In this document: piece by piece, positions 38,830-63,455 of the stretch
Layout: each line of letters begins with the position of its first letter
How positions within the stretch are numbered: the first letter of the stretch is position 1
Source: Pteria penguin
Taxonomy: Eukaryota > Mollusca > Bivalvia > Pterioida > Pteriidae
Direction: 5' to 3'
Length of the DNA: 64,000 nucleotides
Assembly (NCBI GenBank): GCA_035048485.1
Contig: CM068587.1
Coordinates: 24,467,034 to 24,531,033, forward strand
Notes under the pieces: generated by a model
Databases searched by the model: none
Told to the model about the DNA's origin: nothing
Seen by the model: the letters and a program-made list of their open reading frames with translations, nothing else
Translations under genes and position numbers: made by a program

Positions 38830-41800
38830 CTAATGTTGACCTTCTCTTATCTTCTGAACTGCTTTCAGGCCAATCCTCTTTGACACACTGAAAAAAAAAG
38901 TAATATGTATGCAATCACATGTACATCTACAAAATGATATTTTATGATGAGTATTAAGTATTGGTATCTATTACTGCATTCTTATGAATGAATTCCTTCA
39001 TCATCCTGTCAATATTAACACACTGAAAATGTAAAACAATGAAATGCTTACATAATCATCAAACAACAATGTTAGTATTTGGGTGGTTCATAAATGCTTT
39101 TTGTAATTTTTTTTTCTTTTTATTGAAAGTTTTGTGATTTCTATAGAGGAAGCAATACACTGATAAAAATCCACATATTTTGCTTGTTTCTTCAAAGAGT
39201 AAGAATTTATATGTCCTTTAAAAAAATAATATTAAGTAAATATGTCGATACGACAATGATATGAAGCCGACGTGGCCTAGTGGTATCGTGCTGGACTCCT
39301 GATCGAAACGCCGGGGTTTGATTCCCGCTCTGGTCATGCCAGTGTCCTGTCCTTCGGATGAGAGTAAAAACCGAGGCTCCATGTCGTGGTACGCATGGCA
39401 CGTTAAAGATCCCTCACTGCTTCGGGTGGGTCCGTTGCAAAGGTCAAAATTTGTATGCCCAGCATCAGGCAGATGCCGTCACCATATATGTGAAATATTC
39501 GTGGTGTGACGTTAAACAAAACTCAATCAATCAATCAATCAAAACGACATCGATATGCCATACTATATGCCCCACCAGCAGCAAACATCAAATATGACAT
39601 ATTTTATACAGCACATGTAGTCCAAGGCCCATAACCCCAAACTTTGAATGAACAGCATTCCCCTTACAATATGCACATCTATATATTGTGATCTTTGGTT
39701 GTACCAAGTTTCATTGAAATCCTCCAAAGTTTTAAGCAGGATTTGTAAGGTGAAGGTGAATTGGAATTTTAACCATATAGATCTATGCATAGACATCCGA
39801 GGGGCATAATTCCATAAAAAATAATATGATAGTCACTAAATTACACCTTGATCTAAATATTTTCATGATGTATCTATATATCTAATTTCAAGTAAATATG
39901 TGCATTCACTGCAGAGATAGAGCACGAAAACTTTTTATTATTGGAAATTTTCTAAGTTCATGGGGCATAACTCTGTCAAAAATTATTCAATCGAATGCAA
40001 ATCATCTCTTCACCTAGATTATCTCAAGATGTATTAGTATGCCAAATTTCAATTCAATATGTGCACCTATTGCAGAGATATAGCACAGAAACGAAATGAT
40101 GATGGAATGACAGAAAGGAGTAACACTATATGCCCAAACCAATCTCAATGGCAGGGCATGAAAATGGACAGTATGATGAAAATCACAAATAATATCCAGT
40201 TGCAATTCTTGTCATAATTTAATGGAATAGAAAATACTAGAAATGCAAACTGAAAAATGATCAGAAAGTTTTCTGAAAATATAACAACATCATTAACAAA
40301 GGGATAAAATACTTACAACTTAGAAAGATTTGGAAAGTACTGGTTTAAATATAAGAAAGCCAATACAGGATTTCTTGACATCCATGTCTCATCCAGTTTG
40401 TTAGCAATGGAAATGGCACACAATTCAGCACACCGTTCAGTAGACATTCTTTTTTCTGCTGCATTCATTGAACCCTCTAACATCTGCAAATCAATCAAAA
40501 CCTCTACCATAAACTGTCCACTCATTTTGCTGAGTGCATATTACATTTCTAAAAAATAAGTATCAAAAACAGAAATGACACTAAATGGCATTAAACAACT
40601 TTTATGGCAGTTTTCAACCATATTTTTACTGCTTTTCCATCCCCTAGATTTTCTATCACTCTTTCACATATTCATGATATTTGGGTCCCATTAAACTTGC
40701 ATCTAGACTATATGAAACTTGCTTGTATCACTTTTACATGTCTTGGTACACCAAAAATTTATCAACAACATGCATCTTGTTTTTGAAAATGGATAATTAC
40801 ACATGAAAAACTTTCATACATTAATTTATAGGAAACTAAAACCGGTCAGCAGGTCATTCATGGCATCACATGTCTGGTTTAGAAAGTACACAGTGCACAA
40901 AATAAACTGGCACACTAAATGCTTAGACTGCCTATCAATGTATACATCAAAGATATTTGGAGATAAAGTTTATGTTTTCCATGTCATGGGCACAAAAGAA
41001 ATTCTATTTCATCAAATTTTGAATTATCTTTTTACCTCCAATTATCATCACAAGTTATTACCCTTATGACCCTATTCAAGTATCCATCCAGTTTGTTAGT
41101 AGATACATGTATGTGCTATTTTCATAAACTACTTGCCACTTGCTACTTCAAACCAAGGCAAAATAATACAGGAGAGCTATCTTTGAAATAAACCTTTTAC
41201 TTAATATATGGATGAACTGTATGTATTTACCTATCAAGATGTCATAGGAAGAACTTTTCAAAGGATTTAAATAGCTTTTCACTATAAAAGCCTTAAAATT
41301 GAGGTGGGATCAACATTGCAGCAAGGTCTAGCTTTGAAAAAAAACTGGATACCAGATGCCATAAGGATAATTTATATCAAATATGAAGTCATTGTGGCTT
41401 GTTGTTCTTCAAAGGAACATTTTTAAAGATTTTTCTACATAAGACCATTTAAACTATAGTGAAACTGCAGGGCCTTCCATAAAACAAACTGAATACCATA
41501 GGTTTTAAAGATGTTGTATACTATTTATGTCAATTTGGGTAGTGAATCTTAAGAAGAAAATTCTAATATATATGTTATCTATATAAACTTAAGTAATAGC
41601 TCAGGGTTTGACATTAACTTTTGAGAGATGTGGTCCAGTTGGACAGTCTCTTTGAAATTATACCCATCCAAATTCAAATCTTGGTGGTCCAATTTTACAT
41701 AATGTCGCTCAAGTGATTCAAGTCCAGATTCTAATTAAATTATTACATTTTATAAGAGCTTACAAAAGATCTAGTAATGTTTTAATATGAAATAATCATA

Positions 41801-44800
41801 AATCTGTGGTAGATCATCACAGTATTGGGGAAAATAGCCACACAGGTTACTCGTTATGCTACTGACAATCTGAAAGTAATTTTTTTGTAACATCTAAATC
41901 TAAACATTGCAACAGTCGAAAAACTCCACAATAGCAGCACTAACCCGATTTCATTAAAGCTACCAACATACAGTGTACATATTATGATTGACAGCATTAT
42001 GACACTGGTAGATTACGATATGCATTATAAGAATATAATCTTCTCATAGGACATGTTCAAATGTTACTTTATTTCACACAACTTGTATATATATATGAAA
42101 GTTGCTTTCGATAGATTTCCTTTGAACCATTTTGGTATTTTGATGCACTGTTATTTCGTTCAAAAGATCCGTAATACTTATTGCTACTGTTAAATACTGA
42201 GCCCATGTTTGTCAACTTGAATCCATCAACTGATAGCAGTTTGATAACATTCACAATAAAATAATTCAGATGTAAAAAATTTATACTAGACAATGTCGGT
42301 CAAACGTGCCTTAATGTTGAACTCTGTAGCTGTCTATAAAGGTAAAACGCTAAATCATTCAGTAGGGTCTTCACTAGAAAAACTTGATGCTACATATCAT
42401 AAAGATTCTGTATACACAAGCAACATCAGAGAATTGTGGTCTCCCGCTTTTGAGGTTCTATCAGTAAGGTGCAGTGATCTGTGACATATTGTTGTGGTTG
42501 TGCATGTCTGCAGACACACATGCTAAGTATGAAGGCCCTATGTCTTACAGTTAAAAAGTTAAACTGAAGTAGGTCAAAGGTCATGGGTCAAGGTCACATG
42601 ATAAACAAGAGCAACGCCTAGCGTGGCATAATACGCCCGTCGCTTTATTCGGACAGGATCAATTCGCATTTGGCATGATTTTCATGAAAAACATCTGACG
42701 TTTACTGAAGTTAATTGCGTTACATAGCATTTTATCATAGGAATAAGTCCAAGGGCAATAACTTCTGCAGAAATGGTCCTATCCAACCCATCTTGGAACT
42801 TGACCTGCCATAAAAACCTTGAAACTTTTTAATACAAGCCCAGCCCCCCCTTACACCTCCCCCCCCCCCTCCTAAAATTATAAATTTCTCAAAAATGAAG
42901 AAAAAGATATCAATACCTGTAAAATATGTGGAAGTTGGTACATTTTACTTGTTTCATGGTAAATTTCATAATGTTTTTACAAAAATTAGATTTTTAATGA
43001 ATTTTCAAAACAAAATCTTGAAATTTAAAAGTCCAAGGGCCATAAATCTGTCAAAAGTAGGTCGATCGTATCAAAACTCGAACTGGTACTGACGCCGCTT
43101 AGAATAAAGCTATATACCAAATTTCAACGCAATATCTTGAAAGACAGCAAAAAAAAAACATGGCCTAGGACATATGGTCAACCCACCCTCCCTCTAAAAT
43201 TATAAATTTCTCAAAAATGAAGAAAAAGATATTACAAACCGTAACATATGTGATAGTTGGTACACTTTACTTGTGTCATGAGAAATTTCATAATGTTTTG
43301 AAAAAAAATAGATTTTTAATGAATTTCTGAAAAAATCTTGAAATTTTGTAAGTCCAAGGGCCATAAATCCGTCAAAAGTAGGTCAATCGTAACAAAACTC
43401 GAACTGGTACTGACGCTGCTTGATATAAGGCTATATACTAAATTTTAACTCAATATCTTGAAAGACAGCAAAAAAAAAATCCGGAAAACATGACCTAGGA
43501 CATATGGTCAACCCCCCCCCCCCTAAAAGTATAAATTTCTCAAAAATGAAGAAAAAGATATTAAAAACCGTAACATATGTGATAGTTGGTACACTTTACT
43601 TGTTTCATGAGAAATTTCATAATGTTTTGACCAAAAATAGATTTTTAATGAATTTTTTTTTTAAATTTTGAAAGTCCAAGGGCTATAAATCTGTCAAAAG
43701 TAGGTCAATCGTTACAAAACTCGAACTGGTACTGACGCCGCTTTAAATAAAGCTATATACTAAATTTCAACTCAATATCTTGAAAGACGGCAAAAAAAAG
43801 TCCGGAAAACATGACCCCAGACGCACCGACACACGCACGGACGCACGTACGAACAGCGCCATAACATAATACATCCCGTCTAATGACAGGGGTATAAAAA
43901 TTCTGGTACACACAGAAAGGTATTGCAATTAGGAATACACATGCCAAATGTGAAGGCCCTAAGTCTTACGGTTTAAAGGTTACATTGAAGTAGGTAAAAA
44001 GATCACGGTCAAGGTCACATGAAAAAAATTTTGGTACCAACCGAAAGGTTTAAAGTTTTTGTGACAGACGGACGGCTGACAGACAGACAAATGAGATTTA
44101 ATATCCCCACACTTTCGCGAAAAGCTGGGGACAAAAATATAAAATCATTGAGGCTTTTAATTTTTGGAAAAGACAGTTTTTCAATACTTTTCCTAAATAA
44201 GGCTATGAAAAACTTTCAATGCCTGAGGCAAGATGAAATATTGCTACAGTGTCTTCCTTTCTTCTACAAGTCATATTGTATACTAAATATAAGTTTATTT
44301 TGTATAGCGGAAAAAAAATTTTAAAGTTCCAGCAATTTAACACATAACATACAGAGGCCCTACTTCAGGGCAATGACAATTATTTCAACACAATTTCATC
44401 TCCTTTCTGAGAGGATTATACAATACAGTAATATATATGACTGCATCTGTGCAGCAGTTTAGAAATAGTCTAAAATGACAATAAGAATTATCGATCCCTA
44501 AGAAAATTCTAGTGAATAATACATGCTTTTTCAAAAATTCTTTTTTTACTAGAGGAAAATATCATACATAAATAAATTGGTGTTAAAACATTACCTACCC
44601 ATATTTGTTTTTGTTTGAGCAAGAAATCAATATTATGGAGTCTTAACATGCTTAATTCATATTTTTGTAATTTTTGAGTCAAACATATCATCTTCTAGTT
44701 TGCATTGCACAGCCAATGTTATGTAAATCAGCAGATTATAAACTCTTCTTATTTGTAGTATAATATCTTTCCTTCATGGTTCAGTATCAATTTTAGAATC

Positions 44801-47800
44801 CCTTAAATATCTTGAGGGAAAAAGGCTGTCTTGCATCACTGGTTGCTAAAATTATTCCCCCATATGTATACATCAAAATGTGATATTAAGGGTGCTGATA
44901 ATGTAAAAACATGTGCAAATCTCATTTTCTTGATTTATTTTCATTCTACAATACCACATGTACTTAATAAACATACGTAATATGTATGTATCAATGTTAG
45001 ATTTCATGCAAAGTAAGATTTTATTACCCTACCCCTAATTTGTCCCCAAATCATTTTAAAAACAATGAGAGGGCAGGTCTTACAGAGATGAGTTACATGT
45101 GTGGTTCATATTTTCACACTGCACTTTTTCTGCAATATCAGGTGTTTCTTTGAACATAAATATATTCTATATAACCATGCTAAATCTTAAAAATAAACAA
45201 AATAAAAGAAAAACATCCTCTTATTTGGGCACAAAATTTATGCAAACAACTTGGTAAGTTGTAATAAATCAGAAATATGTTTAAGACTCATAGTTTTACA
45301 TTATTTTGTTACTACATTGTACTATAATATATATGCTATTTTTTATGAAGACAAATCAACACAGTTTTATTTCCCCTACCCCTCCTTCTGACAGAACATA
45401 TATGATGTCATCCAAGGATCGAGAACCCTTAAATGTGTAACATATTCATGGGCTGACAAACAGATGACAGACAATACACTATAAAAGTTCACTTTATATT
45501 AGCTAACAAATATTTAGGCAACTACATTTCCTATGCACAATGTCACACACAGAATGAATGGATATCCACACGGATGGCTGAGATGCTGTCAAAATACAAT
45601 CTTGTGCAAATTGTCAAAGATTTATAGATGTAAGTGTAGGTAAGGGAAGGATATTTTGGTAAGTGTAAGTGTATTTACCTCCCCTGATTTTTCAGTAAAA
45701 GCAACCGCCATGTTGTTTGAAAAAGTAGGACCAGGGCATATTGATGTAACAGCCACATTTCTATCTGCAGTTTCTACCCGAAGACAATCAAACCAACCCT
45801 TTTAGAAAATAAGAGAAATGTTACTGAAAAAAATATATGTATGCATACCTCCCCTTCATTCTCTGTGAAAGCAGTCGATAGAATATTGGAAAAGACAGGT
45901 CCTGGACATATGGACGTTACATATATCCCTTGATCTGCCACCTCTGTACGTAAGCTATCAAACCAACCCTAAAAAGAATGTCCGTAAACTTATTTCATAA
46001 ATCATTTGCCAGGTATTGACAATGTATGTAATAACTAATATATCAATATAAACCACAACATTTCCTTCATATCTTTGTCACAAATATAACTAAAAATGAC
46101 TGTAACATCCATTGCAGCAATACTGACACACTGATTATAAGGTAAACTGTATTTTTTCTTTTTGTACTTCAGTTCAAACAATTATTTACGATAGCACATA
46201 TAAGCAACCCTTTCTTGTTAAACAAGAGGTTTAAATGGGCCTATATTGCTCACCTGAGCACATCTCTTCATTCGCAAACAATTGACTGCTTAAAAATATT
46301 TGCAGATACATATACTCTCTTGCTTATTGCAGTGATTCAGATTGGCGTCGGTCATCGGTCATTGGCGGATAAAAATCGGAAATGACCGATAAAAATTTGC
46401 TGTCTTGGTCAAAATGACCTATTACTTAAACTCTACCAGGACAGAATGACCGATCATTTTTCCCGTATAGTGGTCAATACAAAACTCGGAAATATAAATA
46501 TAATTTATTATTCAGTTTTTAATCGATTCTGTATTTTGTGAATAATTTTGAGACGATCCCTGTACTTTCACTTTTCATGTTAACATGTCTGAATCATTAA
46601 AGCGTTTGGCTAATAGCCCCGTATTCACAGCTGATTTAAAGTGTCAAATTGACATAGATAAAAATGCCGCCAAAGACAAAAACAAGGCTACTTTCGGGCC
46701 AAAACATTTTGGAAAATTTTGGTTTATGTAATGAAGGTAAATGAGTCTGAAACTCAGCAACAGACTGCCGCTGACGACTCCAAGTCAACATCAAATTCAA
46801 ATAGCGCCCCTGGCCCCGTTCATATTCGGAAATTTCAAGATTCTTGGCTGTCAATTTATCCCTGGTTGAGATATGAAAAAGATAAAAATGAAATGACTTG
46901 CGATGTATGTATAAACGCATCAAGAAGTAATTCCTTTACAAAGGGAAATGGCAATTTCAGGACAAGTTCTCTAATTGAACACCTCAAGGAGAATGATCAC
47001 CAAGCTGCCCTAATCATTCCCTCCCTACAAAATAACATGAAAACAAGAGGCCCAAGTGGGCCTATATCACTCACCTGAGTACTTAGATTATCAGTCATGC
47101 ATGAAGGAAGAATTATTTATTTTTGCATTACTGTGACTAAGTCAACACAAATGTTGAAAATATGTCAAATTTTATTTCAGACCAGAATAAAAAACCACAG
47201 TTTTTTGCACATCCATTCAGGTGATTTTGATATTCAGCATTTGCTCTGTCTCTGCAAGATGTGATTCAGGGCAACAAGTTTGTCATTTTCTTTCGGTGGG
47301 ACCTTTTGTTGACTGATTTCAAGTCTGGGTCATGAACAACCATTGTTTCAAATATTGTCCAGATCCAATTCAAAATGGCCTAATTTCATATGTTGAGTGT
47401 TGAGAAACATCTAAAAACTTATTTAGATGTGTAAAGAAATGAAAAAAACTTTTTGACCACAGCGGGATTTGAACCGCTACTCTCCATATTTTAATTAGCA
47501 AGGGGTATATGTACTATTGTGAGACCTATTTTTTAGACATGGTGGCACCATCTGTTGACCAATTTGGATGAGATGTAAAAATTAATAGAGGACCTATAGT
47601 ACTTCATGTATACCATGTTTCATTAAAATCTTTCATGTGGTATAACAGCAGAAGTTAAAAATGTGAAGAATTGTCCCTATACACCCTCATTTGGAAGTCT
47701 TAAAAAATTCATAGAAAATCCACATATTGAGATATTGACTAAATTCTTTCAAAATAAGATTCCTTATCATAATTATGATCAAAATAGTCTATAAGAAATC

Positions 47801-50800
47801 ATCATTATCAATTAACTAGGAAATATGACACTTTTCTGCATTGAAATCACGAAGTCCAAAAAATGTCGAAAAAATTTCTAAAATCTGATTTTGGAAGGGA
47901 ACCAAAATGACAATACTTCTTCACTCATCCCTCTAGATCATTTCTTTGCACTCTGTTTGTCTCTGTATACAGCCAGTATGAAGAAGCAGATTGTCAAAGG
48001 AGGGTGCTCTTTTGTGACCTACTTTTGACTATGGTGGCGCCACCTGTAAAGAGGCCTGAACGAAAACGACAAAATTTAAAAGGGATTATAAGGGATTTAT
48101 TTCTACAAAGATTTACTAAAATCCTTTGAACAGTTTTGCAGAAAAAAGTGAAAATGTGAAAAATGCCCCCCCCCCCCCCCCCCACCGTTTATTTGGAAGT
48201 GTTAAAAAATTCATAAAAAATCCAAAAATGGAGATATTGACAAAATTCTTTCACAATAATATTTCTTACCATAATCATGATCAAATTAGGCCATAAAAAC
48301 TCATCATTATCAATTAACTGAAAAACATGACACTTTTCTGCATTGAAATTACTAAGTCCATAAAAATGTCGAAAAAACATCAAAAATTTGATTTCGAAAC
48401 AGAACCAAAAATAACAACACTTCTTCAGACATCCCTCTAGATCATTCCTATGTATTCGGTTTGTCTCTGTATGCCCCCGGTCTGAAGAAGTTTGTTAAAG
48501 GAGGGTACCCTCTGTGACCTACTTTTGCCTGTGGTGGCGCCACCTGCTGACGGATCTGGACAAAAAACAACAACACTTGTAGGGGACCATGAGTACTTCA
48601 TGCATATCAAGTTTCATCAAATTCTGTTCTGCAGTTCTGAAGAAGAAGTCAAAAATGTGAAAAGTTAACAACGGACGGACGACGGACTACGATTGATCAC
48701 AATAGCTCACTTGAGCCTTCAGTTCAGGTGAGCTAAAAATGACTCATTGTTTTTTGTCAGATCAGACAAAATGACTAATAAAATTTTGTTGGTTTAGGTC
48801 ATCTGTCCTATAAGATTCAGTTTCAATCTGAATCACTGTTACTGTGTTTTTGACTACTGATAAATGACTGCAAACTTTGAATCACCAGTCTTAGGCATGT
48901 CAGAACAGGTCATAATAAACAAAAGAACAATTTATATACCTCAAGAACATCAAATTAAATTACCCAGTAATTACCCTCGACTCATAGATTACTATGATTT
49001 GAAACAAACAAATGCTCTATAGTCTGTTTTAGTACAAAATAAAACAAATAAACAAAATTTGCCCCCAGCAGGGAGAGTGCAACCCTTAAGCATGTATTGT
49101 GGGCTAAAATTAAGTCAGGAATCTTTTCCAGATAACTCCTCCTACAGTGACCTTGACTTTGCAGATATGACCTTTGAGTCAAAGTCATGACACACCCCAG
49201 GATCCTCAGCAACAATTCTGTGAAATATCATTCAAATCCATGCAAGGTATAAAAATTTATGGCCTACACGAGAATCAAATTGACATAAGCATTGTGACCT
49301 TGACCTTGCAGATATGACCTTGAAAATCAATAGGTTTCATCCAGTCATAAGAAATGAGTATGCAAAAGTTGCATTATCAAAAATTTGCTATTTTGCCCCC
49401 AAAATGACCTTGACCTTTGACCTTGATATTTAAAATAAAAGGGTTTGTCCTCATGCCATAAGACATCAGTGTTCTAAGTTTGAAAGTCCAAGCCTAAAGT
49501 TTATGGTCAGTATCGTGTTAACAAGGAACAGACAGACCCACAGTCCCACAATGCCACCCCATAATACATCCAGCTACCACGGACGTATAAAAACCACATG
49601 GATGTTCTATTTACCTGTATAGCATGCTTGGAACCAGTGTAGGATCCAGAAACAGGTGCCCCTGTAATATTCGATAAACATTTACATCAAAAGACAGACA
49701 CCATATTATATTTAGATCACGCTTTTCTTCCTGCCCTTAAGAATTAATTCTCATTTTATCTATTAGATTGTGATAAAACCAAATCTACTTTTCGTGTATT
49801 CTGAATTGATATATATTTCATATATGACGAATTCAATTTCATATTATAATTTTTTATCAAAACAAAGTTCTAAGCATTCAAACGATAGATTCACAAAGTC
49901 AAAGAAGATAAAATTCGTTTCCCAAATTAACTTTACCTAATTTTCCAGCCACGCTACTCATGTTGACAATATGGCCCTCCCTTCTCTCCAGCATACTTGG
50001 CAAGACAACCTTAGTAAGGGAGAGAACTCCTAGGACATTCAACTCTAGGACTTCACGATCCACTGATAATGCCGTTTTTTCCCACTTAGCTCTCTGACTT
50101 CTTCCAGCATTATTAACAAGGATATCCACCTGTTAATACATTAACTTCATTACCACAATAAAAACCACAATAAAAACTTTCAGTAACACTTTACTATTTG
50201 TACTTAGTTTAATTATATCTATGATGAGATATTACAAATTCCATGCTTACTTTACTGAATTTTTTGCATACAGCATCAAAGGCAGCTTGATGTGTCTCAA
50301 ACTTCAACACATCCAGTGGCAGAACCAGGATATCTTCCTCTTTTGTTTTGCCTCTTACTATAAAATGAAAAACAGATGAACAAAGAAGTGAAAAAACTTA
50401 AGAAGCAGTGAACAGAAACAACTGTGTGATACAGTATTCTCTATATAATAAGTAATATAGTTATGTTCCTATGCGGGTGTATGTGTGATACAGTATTCTC
50501 TATGTAATAAGTATTATAGTTATGTTCCTACGCTGGTGTATGTGTGATACAATCTTCTCTATGTCATAAGTAATATAGTTATGTTCCTACGCTGGTGTAT
50601 ATGTGATGCAGTATTCTCTATGTAATAAGTATTATAGTTATGTTCCTATGCTGGTGTATATGTGATGCAGTATTCTCTATGTAATAAGTATTATAGTTAT
50701 GTTTCTACGCTGGTGTATATGTGATGCAGTATTCTCTATGTAATAAGTATTATAGTTATGTTCCTACGCTGGTGTATATGTGATGCAGTATTCTCTATGT

Positions 50801-53371
50801 AATAAGTATTATAGTTATGTTCCTACGCTGGTGTATATGTGATGCAGTATTCTCTATGTAATAAGTATTATAGTTATGTTCCTACGCTGGTGTATATGTG
50901 ATGCAGTATTCTCTATGTAATAAGTATTATAGTTATGTTCCTACGCTGGTGTATGTGTGATACAGTATTCTCTATGTAATAAGTATTATAGTTATGTTCC
51001 TACGCTGGTGTATGTGTGATACAGTATCCTCTATGTAATAAGTACTATACTTATGTTCCTACGTATGTGTATGTGTGATACAGTATTCTCTATGTAATAG
51101 GTATTATAGATATGTTCTTACCCTGGTGTATGTGTGATACAGTATCCTCTATGTAATAAGTATTATAGTTATGTTCCTACGCTGGTGTATGTGTGATACA
51201 GTATTCTCTATGTAATAAGTACTATAGTTATGTTCCTACGCTGGTGTATGTGTGATACAATCTTCTCTATGTAATAAGTACTATAGTTATGTTCCTGCGC
51301 TGGTGTATGTGTGATACAGTATCCTCTATGTAATAAGTGTTATAGTTATGTTCCTGCACTGGTGTATGTGTGATATGTTCTTACCCTGGTGTATGTGTGA
51401 TACAGTATTCTCTATGTAATAAGTATTATAGTTATGTTCCTACGCCGGTATTTGTGATACAGTATCCTCTATGTAATAAGTATTATACTTATGTTCCTAC
51501 GTATGTGTATGTGTGATACAATCTTCTCTATGTCATAAGTAATATAGTAATGTTCCTACGCTGGTGTATGTGTGATACAGTATCCTCTATGTAATAAGTA
51601 TTATACTTATGTTCCTACGTATGTGTATGTGTGATACAGTATTCTCTATGTAATAAGTATTATAGTTATGTTCCTGCGCTGGTGTATGTGTGATACAGTA
51701 TTCTCTATGTAATAAGTATTATAGTTATGTTCCTACGCTGGTGTATGTGTGATACAATCTTCTCTATGTCATAAGTAATATAGTAATGTTCCTACGCTGG
51801 TGTATGTGTGATACAGTATCCTCTATGTAATAAGTATTATACTTATGTTCCTACGCTGGTGTATGTGTGATACAGTATTCTCTATGTAATAAGTATTATA
51901 GTTATGTTCCTGCGCTGGTGTATGTGTGATGCAGTATTCTCTATGTCATAAGTATTATAGTTATGTTTCTACGCATGTGTATGTGTGGAGATGTTTTAAG
52001 TTAAAGAGTTACTTTTTTATGAATTACATGTACTTAAATAATAAGGTTCCATTGCAGTTTTAGTACTATGATACTTTCCAATGTTCATTTTTTCTTTAAC
52101 TTTAATATGTATTAAAACTATTGGCACTTTCAGCTGTTACATGAATCTATAAAGAGAGTGAGCATGGATGCTCTATGCAGCAAACATAAACAGTTCACAC
52201 TAATTATTTATGATGTCAGCAAGTCTATGAGTTCAAAGACATACTGAAATTGTAGTTACGGTAATCAAGAAGAAGTAGTATAGTTTTAATATCTGTTACC
52301 ATTGATGTTTTGATATGAGTCTATCATGCAAGAAATGTGTGATCTGGCTTGTTACCAATTATTTATATTAATAAAGAATTCTGTATTAACTAGCAGACTC
52401 CTAAAATAGATTTAAGTAATTGTTGAAGGCTACTCTAGCTTGAACAACTATTCATTTTCCATGTATTAACTTGTCTTTTTTAATTCTAAATACTTAAAAG
52501 ACATTTTCATATATTAAAAGGTATGAAACCTACCAAACAAATGTACATGTAAATAAGTGTTAAAAACTCACAAAGGCATTCTCTTTTAACTCTTTTCAGT
52601 TCATCTTCACGTCTTGCAGACAGAATGAGACGACATCCTACCTTGGCAAGTTCATATGACAGGTATTCACCTATTCCACTGGAAGCCCCAGTGATCCATA
52701 CTACCTTACCATGTAGAACATCTGAAATAAAATAAAACTTCCAGATTAAATATTATCGAGTAAATCAGTATATGCAAGTCTGGTACAGATCATCTAAATG
52801 AGCAACACCTTCTGGGTATGTAAACAAGTTATTTCTTATCAGTTACTAAATCTCAAGATTTTATTAATAGGGATGATATAAACATCGACCATAACTTTCC
52901 CTAACAGGTATGTTGCATTTGATAATCTTCTTTCCTGATCACAAAAACAAATCAAGTGATGGGAAAGCCTAATTCTAGAGCACTGACTCTCTGTATTGGA
53001 ATTGTTGAACAGTTTACTTCAATGAAAACACAAACTGTCATGTGACAATATTCATTGAAGATTGTGGCTTTCATGATCATCAAAAACCTCCCGATTATTC
53101 TGCACATTGTCATTCCAAATGTAGAAGCCTTAAGACTTTCCTCTCTCCTTTCAATTTTTACATTAAATTTTCCAAGTTAATAAATATGAATTGAGCTTAC
53201 AGGTAAGGACTGATACAGCTTATGATCCGAAATAGCAATAAACTTACCTGCTTTCTTTCCTAACTTCTCAGTAATTTGGAGAATAATATCACAATCACCA
53301 ATAATGATAAGTATGACACAGACAATGAAGTATATTACAGTCACCACAGATAGCAGGTAAAACCAATCCAT
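38830..53371 (-). CDS. DHRS7: DHRS7-like short-chain dehydrogenase/reductase, 8 coding exons, alternative exon 6
   Basis: Exons (minus strand): 53,371-53,248; 52,721-52,572; 50,357-50,251; 50,129-49,937; 49,661-49,615; 6A 45,968-45,849 or 6B 45,798-45,679; 40,483-40,317; 38,887-38,830. All have GT/AG borders and matching phases, giving 321 residues (human DHRS7 is about 340). Residues 1-28 form a hydrophobic N-terminal anchor, so an ER-membrane NADP(H)-dependent oxidoreductase is expected, as known for DHRS7; the natural substrate is not settled. Visible SDR marks: cofactor motif TGASSGIG (52-59), NNAG (133-136), catalytic Asn158, Ser186, Tyr199 and Lys203 (YTGSK), and CPGP in exon 6. The start ATG has an ideal context (gaccATGG); a TTTCAG acceptor 6 nt upstream suggests a separate 5' UTR exon. 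Introns 2, 5, 6 and 7 are loaded with repeats. Confidence 0.93.
39264..39543 (+). mobile_element. tRNA-derived SINE, copy 2, in DHRS7 intron 7
   Basis: Same family as the 25.0 kb SINE: A box GTGGCCTAGTGG, B box GGTTTGATTCC, conserved body and (ATCA)n tail. The target duplication is ACGACAATGATATG (39,250-39,263) against ACGACATCGATATG (39,544-39,557), 12 of 14 matching. The second gene copy lacks it in the corresponding intron, so it inserted after the duplication. It lies antisense to the gene. Confidence 0.93.
39560..40150. repeat. Dispersed bivalve repeat (GGGCATAACTCTGTCAAAAA family)
   Basis: Two related halves contain GGGGCATAA(C/T)TC, 'TTTCAATTCAATATGTGCAC' and GCAGAGATAKAGCAC. Absent from the matching intron of the second gene copy. 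No coding potential. Confidence 0.6.
42505..44130. repeat. Nested dispersed repeats with a threefold 300-bp unit
   Basis: The inner element (42,606-about 43,895) begins AACAAGAGCAACGCCTAGCG and ends TAATACATCCCGTC plus GGGGTATAAAAAT. Inside are three about 300-bp tandem units (TAAATTTCTCAAAAATGAAG; GTCCAAGGGCYATAAATC; AAACTCGAACTGGTACTGAC). The outer repeat has a copy on each side (TATGAAGGCCCTATGTCTTAC at 42,529; TGTGAAGGCCCTAAGTCTTAC at 43,950). All within DHRS7 intron 6. Confidence 0.8.
45679..45798 (-). CDS. DHRS7: DHRS7 alternative exon 6B (distal of the exclusive pair)
   Basis: 120 nt, phase 0 at both ends, acceptor TTTTCTAAAAG and donor GTAAAT. It encodes 40 residues from [14 protein letters not shown] through [12 protein letters not shown] to EKSGE. 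It aligns without gaps to exon 6A, 26 of 40 residues identical. Differences from 6A include Val to Thr straight after CPGP and Ile-Leu to Asn-Met in the following loop, a region that contacts cofactor and substrate in SDR enzymes. Joining exon 5 to 6B and then exon 7 keeps the frame. The 6A donor is only 50 nt from the 6B acceptor. Confidence 0.85.
45849..45968 (-). CDS. DHRS7: DHRS7 alternative exon 6A (proximal of the exclusive pair)
   Basis: 120 nt, phase 0 at both ends, acceptor CATTCTTTTTAG and donor GTATGC. It encodes [14 protein letters not shown], then [12 protein letters not shown], to [14 protein letters not shown] is closer than 6B to the sequence known for vertebrate DHRS7 (CPGPV-SNI), so this is probably the ancestral-type version. 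It completes the Rossmann fold behind the YTGSK motif of exon 5. Confidence 0.9.
46664..47036 (+). pseudogene. BED/TTF-type zinc-finger fragment of a hAT-related protein
   Basis: Begins [13 protein letters not shown] (46,664), then shifts frame (or crosses a lost intron) into an open frame from 46,719. Visible: [14 protein letters not shown], then CDVC, and HLKENDH, a C-x2-C...H-x5-H finger of the type found at the N-terminus of KIAA1586/ZNF862-like proteins derived from hAT transposases. The frame ends where the nested repeat inserts (NNMK). No catalytic DDE/RW region remains. Confidence 0.65.
47037..48735 (+). repeat. Nested dispersed element, GCTCACCTGA family
   Basis: Starts AACAAGAGGCCCAAGTGGGCC, whose GGCCCAAGTGGGCC is a near-perfect palindrome, then CACTCACCTGAG. 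It ends GCTCACTTGAGCC and CAGGTGAGCTAAAAAT. Inside are two tandem units of about 500 bp (TTTGGAAGTSTTAAAAAATTC at 47,692 and 48,191) with an 18-base C run at 48,166-48,183. It is inserted in the hAT-like element. Related pieces lie at 46,225 and 63,778. Confidence 0.75.
49040..49600. repeat. Dispersed repeat rich in TGACCTTGACC words
   Basis: Contains GTGACCTTGACTTTGCAGATATGACC, split here as GTGACCTTGACTTTGC and AGATATGACC, repeated at about 49,295 and, as TGACCTTGACCTTTGACC, near 49,410. It ends ATAATACATCCAGCTACCAC and GGACGTATAAAAA. Lies in intron 5, just upstream (+ coordinates) of exon 5. Confidence 0.75.
50425..51990. repeat. 57-bp minisatellite, about 27 copies, in DHRS7 intron 2
   Basis: Unit TGTGATACAGTATTCTCTAT, GTAATAAGTATTATAGTTAT, GTTCCTACGCTGGTGTA. 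Units at about 50,600-50,960 are virtually identical to one another (GATGCAG variant with GTGTATATG); others carry variants such as CTTCTCTATGTCATAAGTAAT or TACGTATGTGTA in an interspersed order. One unit near 51,370 is internally deleted. It starts 70 bp from exon 3. Confidence 0.96.
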
Positions 53372-53414
53372 GGTCACTCTGAAATATAATGTTGTACTCA
53401 ATAAAGTCATAATA

Positions 53415-54447
53415 GTGTGTCATAATCGACGGTCAATCATCAACAGACACCACCATTTCATCAGGAGTCCCTAAGGGAACTGTCTAAGGCCCACTGCTCC
53501 TTTGGATTGTATCAATGACCTGCCGTCATCGACAGTGTCATCCACCACCCGACTTTTGCTGATGATTGTCTCATGTACTGAAGGATCAAGACACCTGACG
53601 ACCAGACCATCTTGCAGAACGACTTAAGCAAGCTTCAGCAGTGGGAGGACCGATGGTTGATGCAGTTCAATCCAGATAAATGTGAAGTACTAAAGGTTAC
53701 TAACCGGAAGGCCCCACAACTTGCCAAATACAAGATCCACAGTCAAGTCCTGAAAACGATCAACTCTGCCAAGTACCTTGACCTGACAATCCAAAAGAGA
53801 ATGCACATAGATAAGATCACCAAGAAGGCTAATTCCACCCTGGCCTACCTTAAGGCAGAAACATCAGCTGATACCCAACTAACATCAAGACACAATGCTA
53901 CTTCACACTAGTGCGACCTACCATCGAATACACCGCTAGCGTGTGGAGCCCAGCTTAAAAAAGGAGAGCATTATCAAACTTGAGGCTGTACAGCGTAGGG
54001 CAGCAAGATTCGCCACTGAAGACTACCAACATACAAGCAGTGTTACATACATGCTACAACAACTCCGGTGTCTGTCACTCAAAATCCGTCGGAAAAGGGC
54101 CCAAGTCATCGTACTGTACAGAATAGTTTACCTGTTTGTGGACGTCCCAGTGGAAAACTACCTACACCCAGCATCACTGCAGGCCAGAGGCCACACCCTA
54201 GAACTACAGTGTACAAGACTTCCTTATTCCCCCATGCCCCTTAGGAACAGATTGCCAGAGGGAACAGTTGCGGCCAATACCCAGGACAGCTTTAAGACCC
54301 AGCTGCCCAGTGGCACCAATAAGTAAAGCAGCTCTGTATTTTATCCATTTTAACATTTTAATTTGCACTGTACATAGATGTTCACCCCCTCATGCAGTGT
54401 GGGAAAATACTTAAATGGTGATGCACTCTACCACAAGAAGAAGAAGA
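53415..54447 (+). mobile_element. CR1/L2/Jockey-group LINE, 3' part of the RT, truncated
   Basis: Plus-strand frames encode SSGVPKGTV then GPLLL (53,460-53,500), the catalytic FADDCLMY (about 53,555), QQWEDRWLMQFNPDKCEVLKV, IHSQVLKTINSAKYLDLTI, and after a frameshift EAVQRRAARFATEDY, VIVLYRIVYLFVDVPVENYL and RNRLPEGTVAA. The 3' end is (AAG)n at 54,434-54,447. Its truncated 5' end lies about 45 bp upstream of the DHRS7 start codon, in the opposite orientation. Stop codons and frameshifts show it is dead. Confidence 0.85.
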
Positions 54448-61774: not shown

Positions 61775-61887
61775 ATTTTGTAGTTTTTTACTATAAAAAG
61801 AGGTCTTACAAAAAGTTTGAACAATTTTCATGATACAATCCACCCCTGAATCCACCACTGTAATACCTAATGCTGACCTCCTCTTAT

Positions 61888-63455
61888 CTACTGAACAGCC
61901 TTCAACCCCAGCATACTTGACAAACTGAAAAACAAAGAAATGAGTATGCAAATAATTTTGTTCTATGGGGTTTTTTCTCATCAAGGGGCAGATTTTGTGT
62001 AATGGTTGACTGTTCAGCTTGCAGTTCAGAGGATTTGATTCTCGCATTGTGATACTATGTTGAGAAGTTTTATACCCTCTGCTTCAAAGTCTCAATATAA
62101 CAGAAAAATAGGGCACCACAAAAAGGGTGCATGTTGACATGATGAATATGCAACTTGGTCAATACTAAAAACAGACACAGTTTATTTTCAGATAATTTAC
62201 TATAATTGTTACAGTTTCTCCTAATGAAGTGGAGAAAAAATTAGTCAATACATAAAAACAGACACAGTTTATTTTCAGATAATTTACTATAATTGTTACA
62301 GTTTCTCCTAATGAAGTGGAGAAAAAAATAGTCAATACATAAAAACAGACACAGTTTATTTTCAGATAATGTACTATAATAGTTAGAGCTTCTCCTGAAG
62401 TGGATAAAAAACTGCGTACTTTTTATTGGTAAGACAGAGAAGTGCAGACAAGTCCTTGGGAAACAGATGAATGTACAGATGGAAGATATGCACAGATGAA
62501 CAGACCAACAACAAACTGAAGGATGACAGCACTATATCATAATAAATTTATGTACCTTTCTCTGATAAAGAGAAAAACTACAGACAACATTTTTATACCC
62601 CAACCATTTTTCCCTACCCCAGGGGCCAAACCCCTAGTTTGAATGCAAGTACACAACTTTAAATCATGCAGACCTTTCATATGCCATCATGTCCTGGTTA
62701 AGGGAAAGAGGCACTGACAATTTTTTGCGGCAATTTTACCCTATTGCAGAGGCCAGAAGCGCAGATAAGATTCCGGGTACGATTGACAGATGGATGGATG
62801 ACACAGTACATTTATAGCATAATACACCCACATTTTAATGCAGGCGTATAAAAATTGTTGAAATTGATGGGGAAAAAGAAATTCAATCCAAACTTGGAGG
62901 ATTTTACAAGTTTTGTGATTTTGTTAAAGTAAGCAATAAACTATCAAAGCTCCATATAATTTGCTTGTTTCTTCAAAGGGTGAGTATTTATATAGCTTTT
63001 AATGTAATATAATCAAAACTGGACAATACAGTGAAAATCACAAATAAATTTCAGATGCAATATGTCATGATTTAATGGAATTATGATTACACATACATTT
63101 TTGATATACTTGGAGATAAGAAAAAAACCACAGAAATGCCATGTACTTCATCATCTGATAGTTTATCACATTTTCTCATCATACCTCAGTCTATACATGT
63201 ACTTCGATTTGAATAAGATAATTTTTATAAACACAAAAATATACATGTATAATATCAATTCCATTAACAAAGAGACAAAATTACTTACTACTTGAAAAGA
63301 TTTGGAAAATACTGCTTTAGATAGAATAAAGCCAACATGGGATTTTTTGACAACCATGTCTCATCCAGTTTGTTAGCAATGGATAAGGCACACAACTCTG
63401 CACACCGTTTGGTAGACATTACTTCTACTCCTGGCTTTACTGAACCCTCTAACAT
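61888..63455 (-). CDS. Second DHRS7-like gene, last two coding exons (5' part outside the window)
   Basis: Exon 7' is 63,455-63,289 (167 nt, same length and phase as exon 7 of the first copy; 39 of 55 residues identical, including MST-RCAELCA and [10 protein letters not shown]). Exon 8' is 61,924-61,888. Splice borders are conserved (TTTGCAG, GTAAGT, TTTTTCAG). The C-terminus ends LGLKAVQ then TAG, because AAG of the first copy became TAG, so it is seven residues shorter than the first copy's [10 protein letters not shown]. Exons 1-6 should lie to the right of the window. Both splice sites and the frame of exon 7' are intact, so it is probably a working paralogue rather than a pseudogene, but this cannot be proved here. 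Confidence 0.88.
62160..62405. repeat. Tandem triplication, unit about 85 bp, in the last intron of the second copy
   Basis: Three units with AAACAGACACAGTTTATTTT, CAGATAATTTACTATAATTG and TTTCTCCTAATGAAGTGGAG; the first two are almost identical, the third diverged. Absent from the equivalent intron of the first copy. Confidence 0.92.

What the first reader, a model, noticed from the sequence alone, without database searches (positions are those of the whole stretch)
45679..45968. Mutually exclusive exon pair in a DHRS7-type dehydrogenase, swapping the CPGP cofactor/substrate loop
Seen: two adjacent exons, each exactly 120 nt, phase 0/0, with good splice sites, aligning gap-free over 40 residues (26 identical), both able to join exon 5 (ends CAG) to exon 7 (starts ATG). 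The intron between them is 50 nt (45,799-45,848), with a likely branch point under 30 nt from the donor, so joining 6A to 6B should be sterically blocked. Known: short inter-exon introns enforce exclusive choice in other genes, and the segment after YxxxK in SDR enzymes (PG motif and following loop) contacts the nicotinamide and the substrate. Inference: the gene makes two enzymes differing in specificity (PGPVFSNIL against PGPTFSNNM). I do not know of this being described for DHRS7.
Basis: partly seen in the sequence, partly recalled or inferred. Interest (0 to 1): 0.88.

Follow-up and report, generated by a model that had tools for sequence, protein, structure and literature searches.

The report
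Swappable active-site exon in DHRS7 gene
A pearl-oyster-like bivalve carries a dehydrogenase gene with two interchangeable versions of the exon that builds part of the enzyme's active site; both look functional here, while three neighbouring copies of the gene have let the second version rot away.

Summary
A complete eight-exon DHRS7-type gene (minus strand, 53371-38830) has two versions of exon 6, each 120 nt, phase 0/0, 26/40 residues identical, separated by a 50-nt intron with one plausible branch point about 28 nt from the donor. That intron is far below the 74 other introns or exon gaps I measured in this genome (121 nt or more). Either exon gives an intact 321-aa protein; both together stay in frame but duplicate a core strand.

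New evidence: this gene is one of four tandem copies. All four have open frames and a well-kept 6A, but in the other three 6B is a relic (lost acceptor AG, shared 2-nt and roughly 35-nt deletions). So the exon duplication is older than the array, and only this gene kept both. Here 6B bears marks of long protein-level constraint: dS saturated, dN 0.28, and almost as close to 120 homologues as 6A, where neutral drift would leave it far behind.

Best reading: a real mutually exclusive pair using the known steric block. The mechanism is known; my searches showed no report in an SDR/DHRS7 enzyme. No transcripts were available, so exclusive use and altered specificity are inferred.

The parts
53248..53371 (-). 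exon 1 (ATG; N-terminal helix, probably a membrane anchor)
52572..52721 (-). exon 2 (TGASSGIG cofactor motif)
50251..50357 (-). exon 3
49937..50129 (-). exon 4 (NNAG motif)
49615..49661 (-). exon 5 (catalytic YxxxK: YTGSK; ends CAG, phase 0)
45849..45968 (-). exon 6A, 120 nt; end of helix F, strand 6, PG loop
45799..45848 (-). 50-nt intron between 6A and 6B; TAAC branch-point candidate at intron nt 26-29
   Evidence: other measured introns or exon gaps 121 nt or longer
45679..45798 (-). exon 6B, 120 nt, intact here and a relic in three tandem copies
40317..40483 (-). exon 7 (starts ATG, phase 0)
38830..38887 (-). exon 8, coding part to TAG stop

Best explanation
This is a functional mutually exclusive exon pair. 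Exon 6 of a DHRS7-type short-chain dehydrogenase was duplicated in tandem, before this gene itself was duplicated into a four-gene array. The gene in the window kept both versions. The 50-nt intron puts the 6B branch point about 28 nt from the 6A donor, too close for both to be used together, so the spliceosome joins exon 5 either to 6A or to 6B and then to exon 7. The two enzymes share everything except residues 208-247 (end of helix F, strand 6, and the loop and short helix over the cofactor and substrate), so they probably differ in substrate or cofactor handling. In the three sister genes 6B was lost and only 6A remains. Shown: anatomy, reading frames, tandem array, 6B relics, past constraint on 6B. 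Inferred: exclusive use, steric block, altered specificity.
For: Same length, phase and frame, GT/AG sites on both exons, clean full-length protein with either. Intervening intron 50 nt, against 28 DHRS7 introns (121 nt or more), 22 chaperonin exon gaps (183 or more) and 24 myosin exon gaps (214 or more) in the same genome. Codon model on 6A/6B: dN 0.28 with dS saturated; omega=1 rejected, 2 delta lnL 29. 6B mean identity to the 120 listed homologues is 21.15/40 against 22.43 for 6A; simulated neutral descendants of 6A average 15.0 (22 nt changes) or lower, 0 of 400 reaching 6B's value in each of three settings. Against 12 outgroups no significant excess of changes in either exon. 15 of the 17 conserved residues carried by 6A are kept in 6B. 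6B decayed in three sister genes, so decay is visible here when constraint is lifted. Literature mechanism: human OGDH exons 4a/4b, branch points 25-41 nt from the donor (PMC7969005, passages); 57 human clusters (9%) with potential steric interference, donor-branch point under 50 bp (PMC5740500, passages).
Against: No transcript evidence for this species; the closest of the 120 listed proteins (of 4014 hits) is 74% identical. 0 of 120 homologues have N at position 236 and 1 has M at 237. A search restricted to the 6B region found nothing at E<=1, but it had only 4 candidates and missed even the known homologues, so it says little; clustering at 90% would hide isoforms. 6B is slightly further than 6A from most homologues (6A closer in 80, 6B in 15, tie in 25 of 120). 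The 6B acceptor (ctaaaag) looks weaker than that of 6A by eye. Retention of an intact 6B by chance since the split from the sister genes has probability 0.07-0.10, so present-day use is less certain than past use. Some introns shorter than 66 nt are spliced in human (PMC4463651, passages), so steric exclusion is not guaranteed. Double inclusion keeps the frame, so nonsense-mediated decay would not be expected to enforce exclusion.
Confidence: 0.72

Rival explanations
1. 6B is a formerly used exon that has recently fallen silent in this gene too and simply has not yet decayed, as it already has in the three sister genes.
For: All three sister copies have lost it; chance survival of an intact 6B since the split is 7-10%; its loop carries residues hardly seen elsewhere, I236N 0/120 and L237M 1/120; its acceptor looks weaker than that of 6A by eye.
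Against: No stop, indel or splice-site loss in 120 nt although flanking introns differ by 18.5-19.6% with 2.4-3.1 indels per 100 bp between copies; conserved positions kept; amino-acid rate not significantly above that of 6A.
Confidence: 0.17
2. Both exons are used but not exclusively: 6B is an optional cassette or 6A-6B transcripts are made at times.
For: Double inclusion and double skipping both stay in frame; very short introns can be spliced in human genes (PMC4463651, passages).
Against: 50 nt is far below the shortest other intron measured here, 121 nt; double inclusion would insert a second strand 6 into the Rossmann core, since exon 6 spans the end of helix 197-218, strand 222-229 and helix 236-239 in a pLDDT 95 model of the Pinctada homologue.
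Confidence: 0.08
3. Assembly or collapse artefact, with two alleles or paralogous exons placed side by side.
For: None found beyond the general possibility in a tandem array.
Against: The 6A-intron-6B arrangement with the same 50-51 nt spacing recurs, intact or as relic, in four separate copies, in a 56.6-Mb contig.
Confidence: 0.02

Closest known systems
OGDH mutually exclusive exons 4a/4b (vertebrates)
   Same: Mutually exclusive exons in a metabolic dehydrogenase gene, short intervening intron, human branch points 25-41 nt from the donor, below the proposed steric threshold (PMC7969005, passages).
   Different: Unrelated enzyme; the OGDH exons set calcium sensitivity. Here the exon forms the PG loop beside cofactor and substrate, and branch points are only predicted.
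Crassostrea gigas CgiLBP5 mutually exclusive exons
   Same: Bivalve gene with a duplicated exon used exclusively, in a lipid-binding protein (PMC5399370, passages).
   Different: Different family; transcripts were observed there, not here.
Human DHRS7 (SDR34C1)
   Same: Same enzyme family by homologue names and domains; reported as NADPH-dependent acyl/alkyl-glycerone phosphate reductase (PMC13200781, passages) and as a reversible 5-hydroxyeicosanoid dehydrogenase (PMC11839141, passages).
   Different: Of 14 papers holding both DHRS7 and 'mutually exclusive', the 12 listed do not appear from title or abstract opening to concern DHRS7 splicing (listing only).
Other DHRS7 loci of the same genome
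   Same: Three sister genes keep 6A; a distant paralogue at C8:32746087 has an exon 6 of the same 120-nt length and phase.
   Different: No intact second exon 6 was found in any of them.

Membership tests
Mutually exclusive exon pair | Adjacent homologous exons of equal length and phase | tested here: met
   120/120 nt, phase 0/0, 26/40 aa
Mutually exclusive exon pair | Both exons have canonical splice sites and join the same neighbours in frame | tested here: met
   GT/AG on both, open frame with either
Mutually exclusive exon pair | Protein-level constraint on both exons | tested here: met
   present-day constraint on 6B less certain, 7-10% chance survival
Mutually exclusive exon pair | Transcripts contain exactly one of the two | not testable with these tools
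   no transcripts of this species at hand; closest listed protein 74%
Steric-exclusion type | Donor to branch point under about 50 nt | tested here: inconclusive
   predicted site about 28 nt from donor in a 50-nt intron; branch point not mapped and the threshold in bivalves is unknown
DHRS7-type classical SDR | TGxxxGxG, NNAG, YxxxK, N-terminal membrane helix, SDR domain | tested here: met
   PF00106 4.6e-49 for isoform A, 1.5e-48 for B; invariant G53/S55/G57/G59, N133-G136, Y199, K203 in 58 homologues; helix 3-24 in the model of the Pinctada homologue, its membrane role inferred; motif names recalled
DHRS7-type classical SDR | Oxidoreductase activity on lipid or steroid substrates | not testable with these tools
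   inferred from human DHRS7 papers (passages)

The most novel reading that the evidence does not exclude
A short-chain dehydrogenase whose active-site loop is exchanged by splicing, giving two enzymes with different substrates from one gene, while its tandem sisters dropped the second exon and instead changed the same loop by mutation (VFS to VLT or VFT in 6A of copies 2-4). The array would then show, side by side, exon choice and gene duplication as alternative routes to the same diversity.
Probability: 0.35. Interest if true: 0.68.

Novelty: new member of a known kind. Interest (0 to 1): 0.52.

Why it matters
If expressed, it would be a compact test of how an SDR changes substrate or cofactor handling: two natural enzymes differing at 14 residues within 40, sharing the rest. 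The array also holds a control: the same exon pair intact in one gene and decayed in three, so one can ask what keeps a spliced alternative alive when gene duplicates could replace it.

Tried and rejected
Protein-database search limited to the 6B region: 4 candidates, none at E<=1; it missed even known homologues, so it is uninformative. Looking for isoform pairs in other molluscs among the 120 listed homologues: in none of 19 pairs compared (paired by equal contig length) are differences confined to exon 6; most differ in several exons and look like separate genes, and the Haliotis rubra pair is nearly identical in exons 2-4 but differs from exon 5 on. Dating the exon duplication with a tree of the 40 residues: 6A grouping with the Pinctada imbricata protein to the exclusion of 6B is best by 4.5-4.7 log units but not significant (AU 0.37 and 0.25 for the rivals). 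A possible 51-nt intron in a chaperonin gene proved, on reading, to be a match running into the upstream intron. The species was not identified; the closest listed protein is from Pinctada.

Full report
The observation. The gene lies on the minus strand. Reading the sequence and translating gives eight exons from ATG at 53371 to the stop at 38830, all with GT..AG junctions. Two candidate exons 6 follow each other: 6A 45968-45849 and 6B 45798-45679, each 120 nt, both phase 0/0, 26 of 40 residues and 76 of 120 nucleotides identical. The protein with 6A or 6B is 321 residues without interruption; with both it is in frame with a repeated segment; with neither it is in frame with a deletion. Both isoforms match adh_short PF00106 (4.6e-49 and 1.5e-48). 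The best named proteins in the 5.8-billion database are mollusc DHRS7-like proteins, first Pinctada imbricata at 74% (best 120 of 4014 hits listed).

The surroundings. The window is C8:24467034-24531033 of an 838-Mb genome in 49 contigs. A DNA search with the pair found three further places to the right. With ten fetched stretches and the window laid together, four tandem copies on the same strand appear (c1 in the window; c2, whose last two exons also lie in the window; c3; c4). All four have open frames and GT/AG at the exon ends that I placed; copies 2-4 end seven residues earlier through a shared stop in exon 8. 6A is kept in all (90-95% identity in the 41-residue matches of copies 2-4). 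In copies 2-4 the 6B position carries a relic: the acceptor AG is gone, and a 2-nt deletion and a block deletion of roughly 35 nt are shared; the donor GT is still there in all three. The shared lesions point to one loss in their common ancestor, so the exon duplication is older than the array. A genome search with the 6B protein gave 8 matches at E<=1: this pair, 6A of the three copies, relic pieces of two copies, and a single exon 6 of a distant DHRS7 paralogue at C8:32746087 (10 candidates scored). In the 40 kb fetched around that paralogue the exon layout is the same and one exon 6 was found.

Is 6B constrained? Pairwise codon model (kappa fixed at 2, F3x4): dN 0.28, dS saturated, omega=1 rejected with 2 delta lnL = 29. 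With conserved defined as 75% or more of 120 homologues, 6B keeps 15 of the 17 conserved residues carried by 6A; in neutral simulations this happens in 1.4% (22 nt changes), 0.1% (30) and 0% (44) of 20,000 runs; the simpler enrichment test over five thresholds gives P 0.016-0.076, so it is modest. Being free of stop codons is weak evidence by itself: 27-49% of the neutral runs also have none. Identity to the 120 homologues averages 22.43 for 6A and 21.15 for 6B (6A closer in 80, 6B closer in 15, tie in 25; these rows are not independent). Neutral descendants of 6A would average 15.0, 12.6 or 9.0, and 0 of 400 runs reach 6B's value in any setting. Against 12 chosen outgroups neither exon is significantly faster (P 0.22-1.0). 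Hence 6B evolved as coding sequence for most of its life. For the time since the split from the sister genes the test is weaker: flanking introns differ by 18.5-19.6% with 2.4-3.1 indels per 100 bp, and an intact 6B would survive by chance with probability 0.07-0.10.

How it would work. The intervening intron is 50 nt; of two branch-point-like sites, TAAC at nt 26-29 lies about 28 nt from the donor and about 22 nt from exon 6B, and CTTAT at nt 36-40 lies only about 11 nt from the exon, so the first is the likelier. Other introns of this genome are far longer: 28 in the four DHRS7 copies (121 nt or more) and 22 chaperonin exon gaps (183 or more; 53 of 54 rows used), 24 myosin exon gaps (214 or more) plus two probable read-through introns of about 126 and 249 nt (83 rows). 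Gap lengths are approximate, and the method would tend to miss introns that a match reads through; the chaperonin row with the largest unexplained length was read and is not a short intron. Human OGDH uses branch points this close to a donor to keep two exons apart (PMC7969005, passages), and 57 human clusters (9%) may be of this type (PMC5740500, passages). Against certainty, some introns shorter than 66 nt are spliced in human (PMC4463651, passages).

What is swapped. An AlphaFold2 model of the Pinctada homologue (58 sequences, pLDDT 95.2) puts residues 208-247 at the end of helix 197-218, strand 222-229, the PG loop and a short helix 236-239. Nearest solved folds include HSD17B13 and 11beta-HSD1. 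The CPGP motif is identical in both exons. The differences that depart from the family are V232T (T in 9/120), I236N (0/120), L237M (1/120) and I222V (7/120) in 6B, and N221G (G in 6/120) in 6A. By recalled SDR knowledge, the residue after PGx and the following turn contact the nicotinamide and substrate; this was not tested on a structure. In the sister genes 6A itself changed in the same loop, VFS to VLT or VFT.

Known or new. Mutually exclusive exons are a known kind, also in oysters (CgiLBP5, PMC5399370, passages). Searches joining 'mutually exclusive' with DHRS7 (14 papers, 12 listed), short-chain dehydrogenase (4), SDR family member (0), substrate specificity and dehydrogenase (1), oyster (4), bivalve (14), or active site terms (3) (listings with abstract openings only, apart from PMC5399370) showed no report that appeared to describe such a pair in an SDR; subscription papers and preprints are largely outside that library. 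DHRS7 itself is reported as an acyl/alkyl-glycerone phosphate reductase (PMC13200781, passages) and a 5-hydroxyeicosanoid dehydrogenase (PMC11839141, passages), which suggests lipid substrates to test. Verdict: a new member of a known kind, with a useful built-in control in the tandem array, and no transcript proof.

Noticed in passing
window 50423-51987: Array of a 59-bp unit (about 16 + 10 copies) inside intron 2 of the DHRS7 gene.
   Followed up: no
window 42861-43816: Three tandem copies of a 322-bp unit in the intron between 6B and exon 7.
   Followed up: no
c1 against c3, first 1.4 kb of the compared stretch (window about 52275-53700): Exons 1-2 with their surroundings are 92% identical between copies although most other aligned stretches of the gene are about 74-86%; suggests gene conversion or a partial recent duplication.
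   Followed up: partly
copies 2-4 of the array, exon 8 (copy 2 near window 61870-61930): The three sister DHRS7 genes share a stop codon that shortens the C-terminus by seven residues.
   Followed up: no
Haliotis rubra proteins P0033 and P0045: Nearly identical over exons 2-4 but different from exon 5 on, as if one 5' half were joined to two 3' halves, or after gene conversion.
   Followed up: no
G000:C1:42457135-42457951: Two neighbouring myosin-head exon matches overlap in the profile (104-152 and 122-158), possibly another alternative exon pair.
   Followed up: no
window 46662-47078: 138-codon open frame in the intron between exons 5 and 6A that looks by eye like a BED-type zinc finger remnant of a transposon; not tested.
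   Followed up: no
G000:C8:32737156-32822228: Second DHRS7-type locus with three exon-7-like matches but only one exon 6 found.
   Followed up: partly
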